Source of the DNA: Geminicoccaceae bacterium
Lineage (GTDB): Bacteria; Pseudomonadota; Alphaproteobacteria; Geminicoccales; Geminicoccaceae
Direction of reading: 5' to 3'
NCBI GenBank assembly: GCA_007694015.1
Contig: RECO01000209.1
Location: 1 to 33,087 of the forward strand
DNA length: 33,087 nucleotides
Shown: piece after piece, positions 3,338 through 33,062 of the stretch
Layout: every line of letters begins with the position of its first letter
Numbering within the stretch: the stretch's first letter is position 1
Notes under the pieces: model-generated
Told to the model about the DNA's origin: nothing
The model's input: the letters and a program-made list of their open reading frames with translations, nothing else
The model's database searches: none
Position numbers and translations under genes: made by a program

Positions 3338-3860
3338 CGAGCGTGGTCCTCTGTGGCGAACGGGGGTGGCGGGGAGCAAGGTGCTCGGAGGGAGGCAGCT
3401 GCCGCAAGGGAGGAAGGCGAGGCGGCGGCAAAAGGCAAGGGGGGATTTGATGATCCCCCCTTGCCCCCCCCAGCGACGGTGCTGCCGCCGCTAGCCCGGC
3501 AAACCACGTTCCGAGGGGCGAGGGCAGGGGGTTGGAACGTCGCTCCGCTGCCGCAGGCGATTTGTCATAATAACTGTTATCCCCAGGGTAAGAGCTTGGC
3601 TAGAAAAGAAAGTGGGGTGGGACAGTTCGTTTTGCAGAATCGTTTTTTTTGGCCGGCCGGAGGACGGGGCTTGGGGCGGGAGATGAGGGATCGACCATGT
3701 CCAAAAAGCGGATGGAAGGGTAGCACGAAGAGGTTTGTAATCCTAGAGGCGCGGAGTCGGGCGGTGCCGCTGCGGCGGCTGCGGACGGGCGCCGATGGCG
3801 GTGGACGTCGAGCGGCGGATCGACGCTGGTCGCTGCGAGCGCAGCGGTGAATCTGCGACT
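3338..3860. other. Gene-free region between the M20 gene and tRNA-Ser
   Basis: I see no convincing gene in these 523 bases. Small ORFs here have compositions expected of shadow reading in G/C-rich DNA. The stretch contains repeat copy R1-A (3421-3491) and an AT-rich island at about 3559-3612. It also has an eight-T run next to GGCCGGCCGG near 3642-3660. A perfect 7-bp dyad lies at 3831-3846 (CGCTGCG, AG, CGCAGCG), 14 bases past the 3' end of tRNA-Ser, and could help end that transcript, although no U-tract follows it. Confidence 0.6.
3421..3491. repeat. Palindromic repeat R1, copy A (left half only)
   Basis: A perfect 13-bp stem at 3434-3446 and 3453-3465 encloses the loop TTGATG. The run of C after it leads into a segment ending CTGCCGCCGCT. 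GCGGCGGCA at 3422-3430 pairs with TGCCGCCGC at 3483-3491 as an outer arm. The stem and the C-run match the left part of copy B at 12961 almost base for base (stem CAAGGGGGGA / TCCCCCCTTG, loop TTGATG). The right-hand cap seen in copies B, C and D is missing, so this is a partial or solo half-element. Confidence 0.75.
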
Positions 3861-4423: not shown

Positions 4424-6823
4424 ATGGATCTGTTGGCGAACGAGGGGCGCGCCGTGCGGCTGCCGGTCACCGGCATGACCTGTGCCGGCTGTGCCCGGCG
4501 CGTCGAAACCGCCTTGCAAGCCGTGCCGGGGGTGGACGAGGCCTCGGTCAACGTCGCCCTGGAGCGGGCCGACGTGCGGTTCGATCCCCAGCGAAGCGAC
4601 CCCCAAGCTTTGATCCGGGCGATCCAGGCGACCGGCTTCGGGGTGCGCGAGACGAGCCTGCGCCTGCCGATCCGGGGCATGACCTGCGCCGGCTGTGCAG
4701 GCCGTATCGAGCAGGCGTTGCAAAAGGTGCCGGGGGTGATCGACGCGTCGGTCAACCTGGCACTGGAGCGGGCCGACGTGCGCGTCCTGGCCGATGGCCC
4801 GGCGGCGGGGACGTTGATCGGGGCGATCCGCGCCGCCGGCTACGACGTGCCGGAGGAGGGCGTCGGCACGGCGGCGGCACCGCGCGACGACACGGGCCGC
4901 CAGGATCTGATCGAGCTCGCCATTGCCGCCGTCCTGACGCTGCCCCTGGTCGTGCAGAAGGTCGCCATGATCGCGGGCTTCGGCCTGCATTTGCCGGTCT
5001 GGAGCGAATTGCTGTTGGCGGCTCCGGTCCAGTTCTGGATCGGCCGGCGCTATTACAAGGCGGCCTGGCGTGGGCTGCGCGCCCGCTCCGGCAACATGGA
5101 CCAGCTGGTCGCCCTCGGCACCACGACCGCGTTTCTCTACAGCACGTGGCTGGTGCTGACCTTGGGCGATGCCGCCCACGGCCTGCTCTACTTCGAAGCT
5201 TCCGCCGTCATCATCACCCTGGTCCTTGCCGGCAAGGTGATGGAATCCCGCGCCAAGCGCTCGGCTTCGGCCGCCTTGCGCGAATTGATGGCGCTGCGGC
5301 CGCAGCGCGCGGTCGTCCTGCGCGCTGGCAAGGAGGTCGAGGTCGGCATCGACGAGGTCGGCATCGGCGACATGGTGGTCGTGCGGCCGGGCGAACGGTT
5401 GCCGGTGGACGGCCGAATCGTACGCGGCGAGAGCGAACTCGACGAGAGCCTGTTGACCGGCGAGAGCGTGCCGGTGGTGCGCCGGGTGGGCGACGAGGTG
5501 GTGGCCGGCGCCATCAACGGTCAGGGCCTGTTGCGGCTGCGCGCCGAGCGCATCGGCCAGGACACCACGCTCGCGAGGATCGCCGAGCTGGTCGCGCGGG
5601 CGCAGACCGGCAAGGCCCCGATCCAGCGCCTGGTCGACCGGGTGAGCGGCATCTTCGTGCCGGCGGTGCTGGTGCTCGCGGCCTTGACCTTGCTCGGCTG
5701 GTGGAGCCTTGCCGGCGATTTCGGCGCCGGTTTGATCGCGGCCGTCTCCGTGCTCGTCATCGCCTGCCCCTGCGCCTTGGGCCTGGCGACGCCAACGGCG
5801 CTCGTCGCCGGCACCGGTGCCGCCGCCAAGGCCGGCATCCTGATCCGCGACATCCAGGCCCTGGAGCGGGCCCACCGGGTCGACCTCGTGGTGTTCGACA
5901 AGACGGGCACGCTGACGCGCGGCACGCCGAGCGTGCGGGACGTGCAGCCGGTGGCGGGCAGCGACGCCGACACGCTGCTGCGGCTCGCCGCCTCGGCGCA
6001 GCGGGGCAGCGAGCACGTGTTGGGGCGGGCCGTGGTGCAGGCGGCCGAAGCTGTGGGTCTGGAGCTGGCCGAGCCCTTGAACTTCCGGGCCACGGTGGGC
6101 GAGGGGATCGAGGCGACCGTGGACGGGCGCGTGATCCGCGTCGGCCGTGCGGGTTTCGCCTTGGCCACGGTCGAACGCAGTGCCGAGGCCGAACGGCTGG
6201 AAGCCGAGGGGGCCACGGTCGTCTGGGTGAGCGCCGATGGGGCCGGCTTGGGCCTGTTGGCGATTGCCGACGAAGTCCGGCCCGAGGCCAAGGCGGCCGT
6301 CGCCCGGCTCCACCGGCAGGGGGTGCGTACCGTCCTGCTTACCGGCGACAACCAGCGCACCGCCGACCACGTGGCGGCACTCCTGGGCATCGACGAGGTG
6401 GTGGCCGAGGTGCGGCCGGACGGCAAGGCCGCGTTCGTTCAGGCCCGTGTCGGCGAGGGCAAGCGCGTCGCCGTGGTCGGCGATGGCGTCAACGACGCGC
6501 CGGCCCTGGCCGCGGCCGATGTCGGCATCGCCATGGGCAGCGGCGCCGACGTCGCCTTGGAGACCGCGGGTGTCACGCTGATGCGCCCGGTCGTGGGCCT
6601 GGTGCCGGCAGCTTTGGAGGTCGCTCGTGCCACCTGGCGCAAGATCCGCCAGAACCTCTTCTGGGCATTCATCTACAACGTCATCGGTCTGCCCATCGCC
6701 GCCATGGGCATGCTCAGCCCCACCTATGCCGGTGCCGCCATGGCGCTCTCCAGCGTCAGCGTCGTCACCAACGCCCTGCTCTTGAAACGCTGGCGGCCCC
6801 GCGTCGAGGAGGCCACGCGATGA
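4424..6823 (+). CDS. copA: Cu(I)-exporting P1B-type ATPase
   Basis: The 799-residue protein pumps monovalent copper out of the cytoplasm using ATP. Two N-terminal metal-binding (HMA) domains carry GMTCAGC with Cys20/Cys23 and Cys88/Cys91. They are followed by about eight membrane helices. Transmembrane metal site residues are Cys448-Pro-Cys450 ([13 protein letters not shown]), YN in FIYNVIGLP, and MALSS near the C-terminus, the P1B-1 copper signature. Catalytic motifs are TGES (actuator), DKTGT with phosphorylated Asp492, and [13 protein letters not shown] lies just upstream of the ATG. The stop overlaps the cueR start (ATGA), and a CueR-like promoter lies 32 bases upstream. The gene is complete and of normal length. 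Confidence 0.96.
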
Positions 6824-7925: not shown

Positions 7926-8050
7926 AGAGCGTTTTCCGTTCGGGTTGATCGGTGCCCGTCCCGCCCCGCCGCCCGGCCACCCATGGGATCGTACACTCGT
8001 GGGCGGCCGGGTGGGGGCGCGGGATGGTCAAGCATAGCGGAAAACGCTCT
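7926..8050. repeat. Palindromic repeat R2, copy 1
   Basis: Outer arms of 13 bp are perfect inverted repeats: AGAGCGTTTTCCG at 7926-7938 and its complement at 8038-8050. Inside is a G/C-rich imperfect palindrome centred near 7990. The segment 7979-8032 matches the reverse complement of R2 copy 2 (13108-13189) with only scattered differences, including the loop TCGTACACTCG. It fills much of the gap between trmO and the next gene (7907-8234). I see no gene in that gap. Confidence 0.8.
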
Positions 8051-12960: not shown

Positions 12961-13084
12961 GGCAAGGGGGGACTTGATGGTCCCCCCTTGGACCCCCCCA
13001 GCAGCGGCGTTGCCGCTGCCACTTTTTTTAAGTGGCGCCGGCAGCGCCGGCGCTGGGGGTCCTAGGGGGCCAAAAGCCCCCTAG
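12961..13084. repeat. Palindromic repeat R1, copy B (complete)
   Basis: The left cap is a hairpin with stem CAAGGGGGGA / TCCCCCCTTG (12963-12990). The right cap is the hairpin CTAGGGGGC-CAAAA-GCCCCCTAG (13062-13084). Between them, 30-nt arms at 12995-13024 and 13030-13059 pair at 25 of 30 positions (two more as wobbles) around a TTTTT loop. The whole element can therefore fold as a cruciform with two short hairpins and one long central arm. The left module is shared with copies A and D, and the right cap with C and D. Confidence 0.85.
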
Positions 13085-13212
13085 ATCGCTTTTCGCTTAG
13101 GCAATTCCTGGACCATCCCGCACCCCCGCCCGGCCGCCCACGAGTGTACGAGGCCATGGGCGGTCGGGCGGGGGTGCGGGATGGTCCAGCCGTTCGCAAA
13201 GCCCCCTAGATC
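13073..13212. repeat. 15-bp direct repeats flanking R2 copy 2
   Basis: AAAGCCCCCTAGATC occurs at 13073-13087 (right end of R1 copy B) and at 13198-13212. The second occurrence contains the complement of the glcE stop codon (13206-13208). The 110 bases between them are R2 copy 2 with short flanks. Confidence 0.7.
13108..13189. repeat. Palindromic repeat R2, copy 2
   Basis: Two 33-nt arms (13108-13140 and 13157-13189) are inverted repeats with a single G/T-type mismatch around a 16-nt loop (13141-13156). The arms begin CTGGACCATCCCGCACCCCC. The reverse complement of the right two thirds matches R2 copy 1 (7979-8032). The flanks resemble the 12-mer arms of copy 1 only weakly. Confidence 0.85.
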
Positions 13213-21189: not shown

Positions 21190-21502
21190 GGGCCGCTTGA
21201 ACGGTCCAACCGCACCGTCGTCGTCCGCCTTGGGGCCTGGGCGTCTTCCGTTTGCCCCCCATGATATTGTGACGAAGCCGGCTATGGGCGGGTGCCCGTA
21301 GCGGGCGGTTTGCAACGCAGCAAACGCGACCCTGGTCGAGCCCCGCCGAGACCGGAATTGGCCGCAGCGATCGGCCACCGGGCCTGCCCGGTGGCCGATC
21401 GCTGCGGCCCGGGGGTTACCAAGGGGGCCAAAAGCCCCCTTGGCCTTTGGTCACCTTGGCGTCACAAGCGGCGTGGTTCGTTCGTTTGGGGAGACGAGGC
21501 CC
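21190..21502. other. Gene-free region with hairpins
   Basis: These 313 bases hold no supported gene. They contain a near-perfect small hairpin around 21281-21305 (GCTATGGGC / GCCCGTAGC), a 6-bp hairpin GTTTGC-AACGCA-GCAAAC, then repeat R1-C (21360-21443). A purine-rich ribosome-site-like sequence lies just before the GTG at 21503. Confidence 0.5.
21360..21443. repeat. Palindromic repeat R1, copy C (central hairpin plus right cap)
   Basis: A perfect 24-bp inverted repeat (21360-21383 and 21386-21409) with only two bases between the arms begins GGCCGCAGCGATCGGCC. Nine bases later the right cap CCAAGGGGGC-CAAAA-GCCCCCTTGG (21419-21443) is identical to that of copy D. The central arms share no obvious sequence with those of D or B although each pairs perfectly or nearly so. 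No left cap is found upstream. Confidence 0.85.
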
Positions 21503-30997: not shown

Positions 30998-32146
30998 ATG
31001 AAAGCAGGCGAGTTTCTGTTCACCAGCGAATCGGTCTCCGAAGGGCACCCCGACAAGGTTTGTGACCGGATTTCCGATGCGGTCGTCGATGCGTTCCTCG
31101 CCGCCTTGCCCGAGGCGCGCGTGGCCTGCGAAACCCTGACGACCACGAACCGCATCGTCATCGCCGGCGAGACCCGTGGGCCGCGCGAGGTGCTCGACCA
31201 GGTGGAGGCCATCGCCCGGCGTTGCGTGGCCGACATCGGCTACGAACAGGCAGGCTTCCACCACGCCCACGCCCAGGTCGACGTGCTGCTGCACGGCCAG
31301 TCGGCCGACATCGCCCAGGGCGTCGACAAGGACGGCGCCGGCGACCAGGGCATCATGTTCGGCTATGCCTGCGACGAGACGCCGGAACTGATGCCGGCAC
31401 CAATCCTCTACGCCCACGCCATCCTGCGCCACATGGCCGAGGCCCGCCACGCCGGCAGCGAGCCGCTGTTGGGCCCGGACAGCAAGAGCCAGGTCACGCT
31501 GATCTACCAGGACGGTAAGCCCGTGGGTTGCGACAGCGTGGTCGTCTCGACCCAACATGCCGCGCACGCGCACCAGGACGACGTCCGTGCCGTCGCCCGC
31601 AAATACGTCCAGATGGTGCTGCCCGACGGCTGGATGCCGCCGGAGGATCGGTTCTACGTCAACCCGACCGGCAAGTTCGTGATCGGCGGCCCCGACGGCG
31701 ACGCCGGCCTCACCGGCCGTAAGATCATCGTCGACACCTATGGCGGTGCCGCCCCGCACGGCGGTGGCGCCTTTTCCGGCAAGGATCCGACCAAGGTCGA
31801 CCGCTCGGCGGCCTACGCCGCCCGCTACCTGGCAAAGAATGTCGTCGCCGCCGGCCTCGCGTCGCGTTGCACCATCCAGCTCGCCTACGCCATCGGCGTC
31901 GCCCAGCCGCTCGCCGTATACGTCGACACGCAGGGCACGGGCAAAGTGCCGGAAGCCCGGCTGGGCCAGCTCCTCCAGGAAATGGTGGACCTGTCGCCGC
32001 GCGGCATCAAAGGCCACCTGAACCTCGAGCGCCCCATCTACGAACGCACCGCGGCCTATGGCCACTTCGGCCGCGCGCCCGAGGTGGACGGCGGCTTCTC
32101 GTGGGAGCGCACCGACCTGGTCGAGGCGCTGCAAAAGGCGGTTTGA
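30998..32146 (+). CDS. metK: S-adenosylmethionine synthetase
   Basis: The 382-residue enzyme makes S-adenosylmethionine from methionine and ATP, the cofactor used by trmO, miaB and trmB in this window. Signatures seen are [21 protein letters not shown] (His and Asp for ATP/metal), [13 protein letters not shown], and the P-loop-like [19 protein letters not shown]. Length and ends are normal. The ATG at 30998 is preceded by a purine-rich stretch (GGAAGTGGGAAAG). No SAM riboswitch is recognisable in the 66-base leader. The gene is followed at 7 bases by repeat R1-D. Confidence 0.97.
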
Positions 32147-32152
32147 AGGTAG

Positions 32153-32300
32153 CCAGGGGGGCTTTTGGCCCCCCTGGACCCCCCGAGCAGCGGCGTTGCC
32201 GCCGCCACTTCGAAACTGTCCAACGGGCCGGCGGGCCGTGTTTGCACGGCCCGCCGGCCCGTTGGCTGGGGGTTTCCAAGGGGGCCAAAAGCCCCCTTGG
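32153..32300. repeat. Palindromic repeat R1, copy D (complete, between metK and trmB)
   Basis: The left cap is the hairpin CCAGGGGGGC-TTTTG-GCCCCCCTGG (32153-32177). A left module then contains GAGCAGCGGCGTTGCCG, as in copy B. The central hairpin is perfect: 21-bp arms (32220-32240, 32245-32265) around TTTG. The right cap is CCAAGGGGGC-CAAAA-GCCCCCTTGG (32276-32300). The left cap reads as the reverse complement of the right cap with its C-run, so the element has inverted ends. The left hairpin may also help end metK transcripts. The 208-base gap holds no gene. Confidence 0.87.
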
Positions 32301-32354
32301 CGTTCTTCTCTCCGTTCTTCTCGTTCCAGTCCGTTGGGCGACCACGACACGGGT

Positions 32355-33062
32355 ATGACCTTGACCGATGCATGCGAAGGCCGGCCGCGGCGGGTGCTCT
32401 ATGGGCGTCGGCTGGGGCCGCGGTTGAAGCCGAACCGACGCCGCCTTTTGGAAGAGAGCTTGCCCGAGGTGCGGCTGACCTTGCCGGCCAGGGGCGAAAG
32501 GTTGGAGGTCGCATCACTGCTGCGGCCCGGCACGGACCGGCTGTGGCTGGAGATCGGCTTCGGCGGGGGCGAGCACCTGGCGTTTCAAGCGGCGGCGCAT
32601 CCGGGCGTCACCCATGTGGGGGTGGAGCCCTATTTGAACGGTGTGGCCAGCCTGTTGGGGGAGATCGAGGCCCGGCATCTGACCAACGTGCGCGTCCTGG
32701 TCGACGACGCGCGGCTCTTGCTGGAGGCCCTGCCCGACGGCGCCTTGGAGCGCATTGCCGTCCTCTTTCCCGATCCCTGGCCGAAGCTGCGCCATCGCAA
32801 GCGGCGGATCGTCAACCGGGCAACGGTGGCGGCGTTCACGCGGTTGCTGGTGCCGGGCGGGGAGTTGCGCCTGGCCAGCGACGATCCGGGTTATCTGGCA
32901 TGGATGCTCGACGCCACGCTCGCCGAGCCCCGCCTTGTCTGGCTTGCCGAGCGGGCGCGTGACTGGCGGCAGCGAGCCGACGATTGGCCCGAAACGCGCT
33001 ACGAAGCCAAGGCCAAGGCGGCCGGCCGTCAGCCCGCCTTTCTCCGCTTTCGCCGCGTCTGA
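32355..33062 (+). CDS. trmB: tRNA (guanine-N7-)-methyltransferase TrmB
   Basis: The 235-residue SAM-dependent enzyme makes m7G46 in tRNA. It begins with RRVLYGRRLGPRLKPNR, a usual alphaproteobacterial TrmB opening. The SAM-binding motif is LWLEIGFGGGEHLAFQA, followed by HVGVEPYLNGV and the catalytic/tRNA-binding segment VLFPDPWPKLRHRKRRIVN. It ends DWPETRYEAKAKAAGRQPAFLRF. The ATG at 32355 fits; the frame is open upstream into R1-D but that part is repeat DNA. It follows metK as is common. The window ends 25 bases after the stop. Confidence 0.95.
   Translation: MTLTDACEGRPRRVLYGRRLGPRLKPNRRRLLEESLPEVRLTLPARGERLEVASLLRPGTDRLWLEIGFGGGEHLAFQAAAHPGVTHVGVEPYLNGVASLLGEIEARHLTNVRVLVDDARLLLEALPDGALERIAVLFPDPWPKLRHRKRRIVNRATVAAFTRLLVPGGELRLASDDPGYLAWMLDATLAEPRLVWLAERARDWRQRADDWPETRYEAKAKAAGRQPAFLRFRRV

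What the first reader, a model, noticed from the sequence alone, without database searches (positions are those of the whole stretch)
12961..13084. R1: a modular palindromic repeat family with four copies in 33 kb
Copies at 3421-3491, 12961-13084, 21360-21443 and 32153-32300 share two modules. The left module is a G6/C6 hairpin, a C-run, then AGCAGCGGCGTTGCCG-like sequence. The right module is a G5-CAAAA-C5 hairpin preceded by GGGGG. Complete copies (B, D) have the two modules as inverted ends; A is left-only and C lacks the left cap. This looks like a REP/MITE-like non-coding element that can exist as halves. All four are intergenic. I recall G/C-rich caps of this general kind in other Rhodospirillales but know no name for this architecture.
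Basis: partly seen in the sequence, partly recalled or inferred. Interest (0 to 1): 0.6.

Follow-up and report, generated by a model that had tools for sequence, protein, structure and literature searches.

The report
Lineage-private paired hairpin repeat family
A roughly 110-150 bp piece of non-coding DNA built from nested hairpins has copied itself into well over a hundred gaps between genes in this one bacterium, behaves like the known REP/REPIN class of miniature mobile repeats but without that class's usual enzyme or sequence tag, and keeps a central palindrome perfectly paired even though its letters differ from copy to copy.

Summary
The four window copies belong to a genome-wide family. 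The generic cap pattern (G5-N7-C5) occurs 428 times per strand against 37 for its reversed control, and the exact cap GGGGGCTTTTGGCCCCC occurs 278 times. A complete element is an inverted doublet. Each half is a cap hairpin, a C5-6 run and an internal hairpin, meeting at ACTT..AAGT. Halves and tandem cap arrays also occur. Copies up to 94% identical have unrelated flanks and end 8-12 bp beyond the caps. Copy D splits metK-trmB, which abut or nearly abut in 29 of 29 relatives, so it is a lineage-specific insertion. 58 of 59 sampled loci are non-coding, mostly just behind stop codons. The exact cap is absent from 31 other genomes of the order and 384 sampled from the class. No RAYT-type (Y1) transposase was found, and there is no GTAG/CGTC tag and no target-site duplication. 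In 38 copies the long palindrome is 98.4% Watson-Crick paired (48% if arms are re-dealt), with 336 two-sided changes against 14 unpaired positions. Verdict: a REPIN/BIME-like miniature mobile element, a new variant of a known kind. Mover unknown; palindrome upkeep is probably at DNA level.

The parts
12963..13084 (+). Copy B, complete doublet of beta and alpha ends
   Evidence: 92% identical to another copy (L217) with unrelated flanks
12963..12990 (+). Copy B left cap hairpin, CAAGGGGGGACTTGATGGTCCCCCCTTG (beta type)
12993..12999 (+). Copy B C-run, able to pair with the G-run at 13055-13059
13000..13020 (+). Copy B left internal hairpin AGCAGCGGCGTTGCCGCTGCC, followed by ACTT
13034..13054 (+). 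Copy B right internal hairpin GGCGCCGGCAGCGCCGGCGCT; central ACTT..AAGT at 13021-13033
13062..13084 (+). Copy B right cap CTAGGGGGCCAAAAGCCCCCTAG (alpha type, inverted)
32153..32300 (+). Copy D, complete alpha-gamma doublet between metK (30998-32146) and a Methyltransf_4 (trmB-like) gene (32334-33062)
   Evidence: (144 bits); absent from the metK-trmB junction of 29 relatives
32220..32265 (+). Copy D long perfect palindrome: arms 32220-32240 and 32245-32265, loop TTTG
21360..21443 (+). Copy C, gamma half only: 24-bp perfect palindrome (21360-21383/21386-21409), G5 run, cap CCAAGGGGGCCAAAAGCCCCCTTGG (21419-21443)
   Evidence: (I16, 100% complementary)
3436..3492 (+). Copy A, beta half only: cap 3436-3463, C-run 3464-3471, internal hairpin 3472-3492

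Best explanation
R1 is a non-autonomous, REPIN/BIME-like miniature mobile element. The mobile unit is an inverted doublet of about 88-180 bp (mostly 110-145). Each half is a cap hairpin, an unpaired C5-6 run and an internal hairpin. The C-run of one half can pair with the G-run of the other, so one strand can fold into a compact multi-hairpin structure (shown as a prediction). It has spread by copying into sites just downstream of stop codons (shown: common boundaries, unrelated flanks, an insertion absent from relatives). The likely route is recognition of the folded single strand by an enzyme acting in trans (inferred; the enzyme is not identified and a Y1/RAYT enzyme is not found). Halves and tandem cap arrays are decay or partial-copy products (inferred). 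The copy-specific palindromes are kept exactly Watson-Crick paired. Because one-sided intermediates are almost absent, this is more likely copying of one arm onto the other (template switching or hairpin repair) or selection for a perfect DNA hairpin than selection on an RNA, which would tolerate G-U pairs (inferred).
For: Copy number and spread. Doublet rule: of adjacent caps less than 260 bp apart, 31 pairs face inward, none outward and 11 are in tandem. Common boundary 8-12 nt beyond the caps, and copies up to 94% identical with about 30-60% flank identity. Placement: 58 of 59 loci non-coding; 12 of 34 convergent, 30 of 193 tandem and 6 of 68 divergent gaps; median 25 nt from the upstream stop and 106 nt from the next start. 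Insertion: the metK-trmB gap is 187 bp here with D, but no more than about 81 bp and often overlapping in 29 relatives. Structure: fold z-score -13.7 for D as RNA and -7.7 for B as DNA; 23 of 52 consensus pairs show two-sided changes. Palindrome: 38 copies, 872 pairs, 98.4% paired against 48.2% with re-dealt arms; 336 two-sided differences, 14 unpaired.
Against: No Y1 (PF01797) enzyme in the 93%-complete assembly, no GTAG/CGTC tag and no target-site duplication, so the mover is unknown. No strain of the same genus was available, so movement was not watched between close relatives. The fold is predicted only. Among the very closest pairs, two-sided (5) and one-sided (7) stem changes are about equal, so single-step arm copying is not proven.
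Confidence: 0.78

Rival explanations
1. Host-owned bidirectional transcription terminators or mRNA 3'-end stabilisers: cap hairpins followed by a pyrimidine tract on the outgoing side, placed between convergent genes and after stop codons, multiplied because they are useful.
For: Placement at 3' ends and enrichment between convergent genes. A purine tract outside each cap (78% purine over 20 nt) reads as a pyrimidine tract after the last hairpin in either direction. T-tract terminators are rare in this genome by a strict scan.
Against: Copy D sits inside a gene pair that abuts or overlaps in most relatives. The exact cap is private to one genome. Near-identical copies share boundaries with unrelated flanks. 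There is no long T-run. G-U intermediates are nearly absent. This could be a later use of a mobile element rather than its origin.
Confidence: 0.12
2. A MITE of a DDE-type insertion sequence, moved by a transposase that recognises the inverted cap ends.
For: Inverted termini, non-coding, short, dispersed.
Against: No target-site duplication in 72 elements. The ends are themselves hairpins. No compact autonomous parent in the sample: the only two inward-facing cap pairs 0.26-3.5 kb apart enclose three or four genes (contents not annotated, one search failed).
Confidence: 0.06
3. A conserved structured RNA (sRNA or riboregulator) family amplified in this genome.
For: Strong covariation and very stable fold.
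Against: No Rfam family at gathering threshold. Stems show almost no G-U: 14 non-Watson-Crick among 872 pairs, of which 5 are G-T or T-G and 4 A-C or C-A. Both orientations relative to the upstream gene are equal, 6 to 6.
Confidence: 0.04

Closest known systems
REPINs of Pseudomonas (REP doublets forming hairpins; PMC3116915)
   Same: Inverted doublet of a short palindrome, extragenic, hundreds of copies, variable spacer with compensatory changes. The GI core GGGGGCTTGCCCCC resembles the cap GGGGGCTTTTGGCCCCC.
   Different: No RAYT gene found. Each half carries a second internal hairpin of up to 24 bp. Longer unit (mostly 110-145 bp). The tag is AAGG-like, not GTAG.
CGTC-tagged REPs (PMC3733652)
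   Same: Paired palindromes, common in alphaproteobacteria and said to lack a dedicated transposase.
   Different: No CGTC tag; cap hairpins are longer (17-32 nt in all, against stems of 8-9 bp and loops of 4-5 nt); long internal palindromes.
BIMEs (mosaics of REPs in inverted order)
   Same: Mosaic of interchangeable end types (alpha, beta, gamma), halves and tandem arrays.
   Different: The interior is a hypervariable perfect palindrome rather than a fixed linker. Comparison with enterobacterial BIMEs is from general knowledge, not tested.
Template-switch-maintained hairpins (PMC8794818)
   Same: Multi-base two-sided changes that keep stems perfect.
   Different: Described there for RNA genes; here in a dispersed repeat.

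Membership tests
REPIN/RAYT system | Inverted doublet of short palindromes, high copy, extragenic | tested here: met
REPIN/RAYT system | RAYT (Y1/PF01797) transposase in the genome | tested here: not met
   none at E<=0.001 in a 93%-complete draft; it could lie in an assembly gap
REPIN/RAYT system | GTAG (or CGTC) tetranucleotide at one end of the palindrome | tested here: not met
   GTAG 3 and CGTC 0 of 144 ends; AAGG-like purine tract instead
REPIN/RAYT system | Excision or transposition intermediates | not testable with these tools
   needs raw reads or experiment
MITE | Terminal inverted repeats, no coding capacity | tested here: met
MITE | Target-site duplication | tested here: not met
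   direct repeats no more frequent than with shuffled flanks
MITE | Autonomous parent element in the genome | tested here: inconclusive
   no compact candidate in 775 kb; rest of genome not scanned
Integron attC site | RYYYAAC and GTTRRRY core boxes at the ends | tested here: not met
   0 of 72
Intrinsic terminator | Hairpin followed by a T-run | tested here: not met
   caps are followed by mixed C/T tracts; 4 of 42 tandem or convergent gaps with an element carry a T-tract terminator
Known Rfam RNA family | Score above a curated gathering threshold | tested here: not met

The most novel reading that the evidence does not exclude
A REPIN-like population that spreads without a RAYT-type transposase, and whose internal palindromes are rewritten arm-to-arm by template switching during copying. 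Each copy would then carry its own freshly perfected 21-24 bp palindrome, and covariation would arise from the copying mechanism rather than from selection on an RNA.
Probability: 0.3. Interest if true: 0.62.

Novelty: new variant of a known kind. Interest (0 to 1): 0.42.

Why it matters
The family shows strong structural covariation with almost no one-sided intermediates in a dispersed, apparently non-genic repeat. That warns against reading covariation alone as proof of a functional RNA. It also gives dozens of paired natural replicates for measuring arm-copying in palindromes. A burst confined to one lineage, with no RAYT found, is a test case for how REP-like repeats spread or persist once that enzyme is missing.

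Tried and rejected
attC sites: core boxes absent. Target-site duplications: none above shuffled flanks. Autonomous parent: none compact in the 775 kb sample; a Pfam scan of the genes between the two wide cap pairs failed on coordinates and was not repeated. Insertion of R1 into R2 repeats as empty/filled pairs: the interrupted R2 copies carry a different hairpin of about 38 nt and form an R2 subtype, so not usable. Orientation bias relative to genes: none, 6 to 6. Plasmid and viral collections: no match. Literature searches on double-hairpin elements and on a six-term palindrome query found nothing.

Full report
WHAT WAS CHECKED. A covariance model built from 22 copies across the genome, one of them window copy D, recovers exactly these four places in the window. 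The window is contig 35 of a 3.81 Mb draft genome in 322 contigs, 93% complete; GC is 68.5% in the sample taken.

ANATOMY. A complete element is an inverted doublet. From the outside inwards each half has: a purine tract (often AAGG); a cap hairpin with G5-6/C5-6 stem, usually two to four further variable but complementary base pairs, and loop CTTTTG or ACTTGATGGT; a short spacer (GA, GAA, AAA); a C5-6 run; an internal hairpin; and ACTT, which meets AAGT of the other half. The two caps are inverted copies, and the C-run of one end can pair with the G-run of the other. Three main end types (called here alpha, beta, gamma) are combined freely: alpha-gamma 41, gamma-gamma 8, beta-gamma 7, alpha-beta 7 of 72 listed. 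Some loci are counted once per orientation in that list; a stricter collapse leaves 49 distinct loci. Gamma ends usually carry a 21-24 bp internal palindrome. In the window B is beta-alpha, D alpha-gamma, C a gamma half and A a beta half.

CHANCE AND COPY NUMBER. In a 775 kb sample there are 115 G5-N4-12-C5 hairpins against 4 in a third-order Markov simulation. Over the whole genome G5-N7-C5 occurs 428 times per strand against 37 for the reversed-pattern control, while 40 other genomes show 0-22, at or below the level of their own controls. The exact cap occurs 278 times (144 and 134 on the two strands) here and never in 31 other genomes of the order or 384 sampled genomes of the class. The covariance search scored 73 candidates in this genome and lists 72 matches, one locus being counted on both strands; the rest were not scored, so this is a floor. 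No relative matched. Adjacent caps less than 260 bp apart face inward 31 times and outward never; 11 are in tandem, including arrays with 36-39 bp spacing.

MOBILITY. Copies up to 94% identical have unrelated flanks, and identity falls to background 8-12 nt outside the caps on both sides. No target-site duplication exceeds shuffled controls. Copy D fills most of a 187-bp gap between metK and a trmB-like gene. In 29 relatives in which both genes were found side by side, the corresponding gap is at most about 81 bp and usually close to zero or an overlap, with no element. Small and negative gaps are approximate because gene starts were taken from alignments. This is a lineage-specific gain. The closest relatives by metK (84% and 79% identity) have no R1 but do have the separate repeat R2, so R1 looks like the younger expansion.

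PLACEMENT. With a simple codon-usage gene caller, 58 of 59 sampled loci are not in coding sequence (10 of these at contig or stretch edges). Elements sit in 12 of 34 convergent, 30 of 193 tandem and 6 of 68 divergent gaps of at least 40 bp. In tandem gaps the median distance is 25 nt from the upstream stop codon and 106 nt from the next start. Orientation relative to the upstream gene is even, 6 to 6. Part of the sample was chosen because it held known copies, which raises the density but should not create the preference for gene ends. Contig ends carry caps or long G/C runs in 17 of 93 cases against 34 of 1080 interior windows, so the assembly probably breaks at these repeats and under-counts them.

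PALINDROMES. In 38 long palindromes (872 base pairs) 98.4% are Watson-Crick; re-dealing the arms among copies gives 48.2% (s.d. 2.5). Relative to the commonest pair at each position, 521 positions are the same, 336 differ on both sides and only 14 are not Watson-Crick. RNAalifold finds two-sided changes at 23 of 52 pairs. The scarcity of G-T and A-C intermediates argues against simple selection on an RNA hairpin. It is compatible with arm-to-arm copying by template switching, a mechanism documented for hairpins (PMC8794818), or with selection for perfect DNA hairpins. In the closest pairs two-sided and one-sided stem changes are similar in number (5 and 7), and the stem assignment there is rough, so the choice between these is open.

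MOVER. No Y1 transposase (PF01797), the RAYT family, was found in this genome, although 10 of 40 relatives that lack R1 have one. The ends lack GTAG and CGTC tags. The draft is incomplete and breaks at R1, so a RAYT gene flanked by R1 could be missing from it.

COMPARISON. R1 works like a REPIN or BIME. REPINs are inverted doublets with variable hairpin-forming spacers and compensatory changes, and the Pseudomonas GI core GGGGGCTTGCCCCC is close to the R1 cap (PMC3116915). CGTC-type REPs are also said to lack a dedicated transposase (PMC3733652). R1 fails two defining tests of the RAYT-linked family (enzyme and tag), so it is filed as a new variant of a known kind and not as a REPIN proper.

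Noticed in passing
window 13089-13210 and about 7927-8032; L046:5924-6058, L048:7223-7430, L054:10399-10557: A second dispersed palindromic repeat (R2, about 120 bp, 28-nt arms CCATCCCGCACCCCCGCCCGGCCGCCCA) with at least 40 copies here; copy B of R1 directly abuts one. Divergent copies occur in two sister-genus genomes that lack R1.
   Followed up: partly
L048:7223-7430, L037:about 8817, L083:about 41, L072:about 189: A subtype of R2 carries an extra hairpin of about 38 nt (CCCCAAGCTGCAAAGCAGCTTGGGGACCCC) in one arm, breaking its symmetry; itself cap-plus-ACCCC-like.
   Followed up: partly
L031:10273-10317, L033:10198-10259, L057:43: Contig ends run into long G or C homopolymers next to caps, probably assembly or sequencing artefacts at hairpins.
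   Followed up: partly
L067:15834-15933: A divergent R1-like half with a G4/C4 cap (CCAGGGGACGTTGGGTCCCCTGGAACCCC) between convergent genes; an older or sister subfamily missed by the strict patterns.
   Followed up: no
window 4455-4578 and 4659-4782: Direct repeat of 124 nt (79% identical) at the start of the P-type ATPase gene 4424-6823, probably duplicated metal-binding domains.
   Followed up: no
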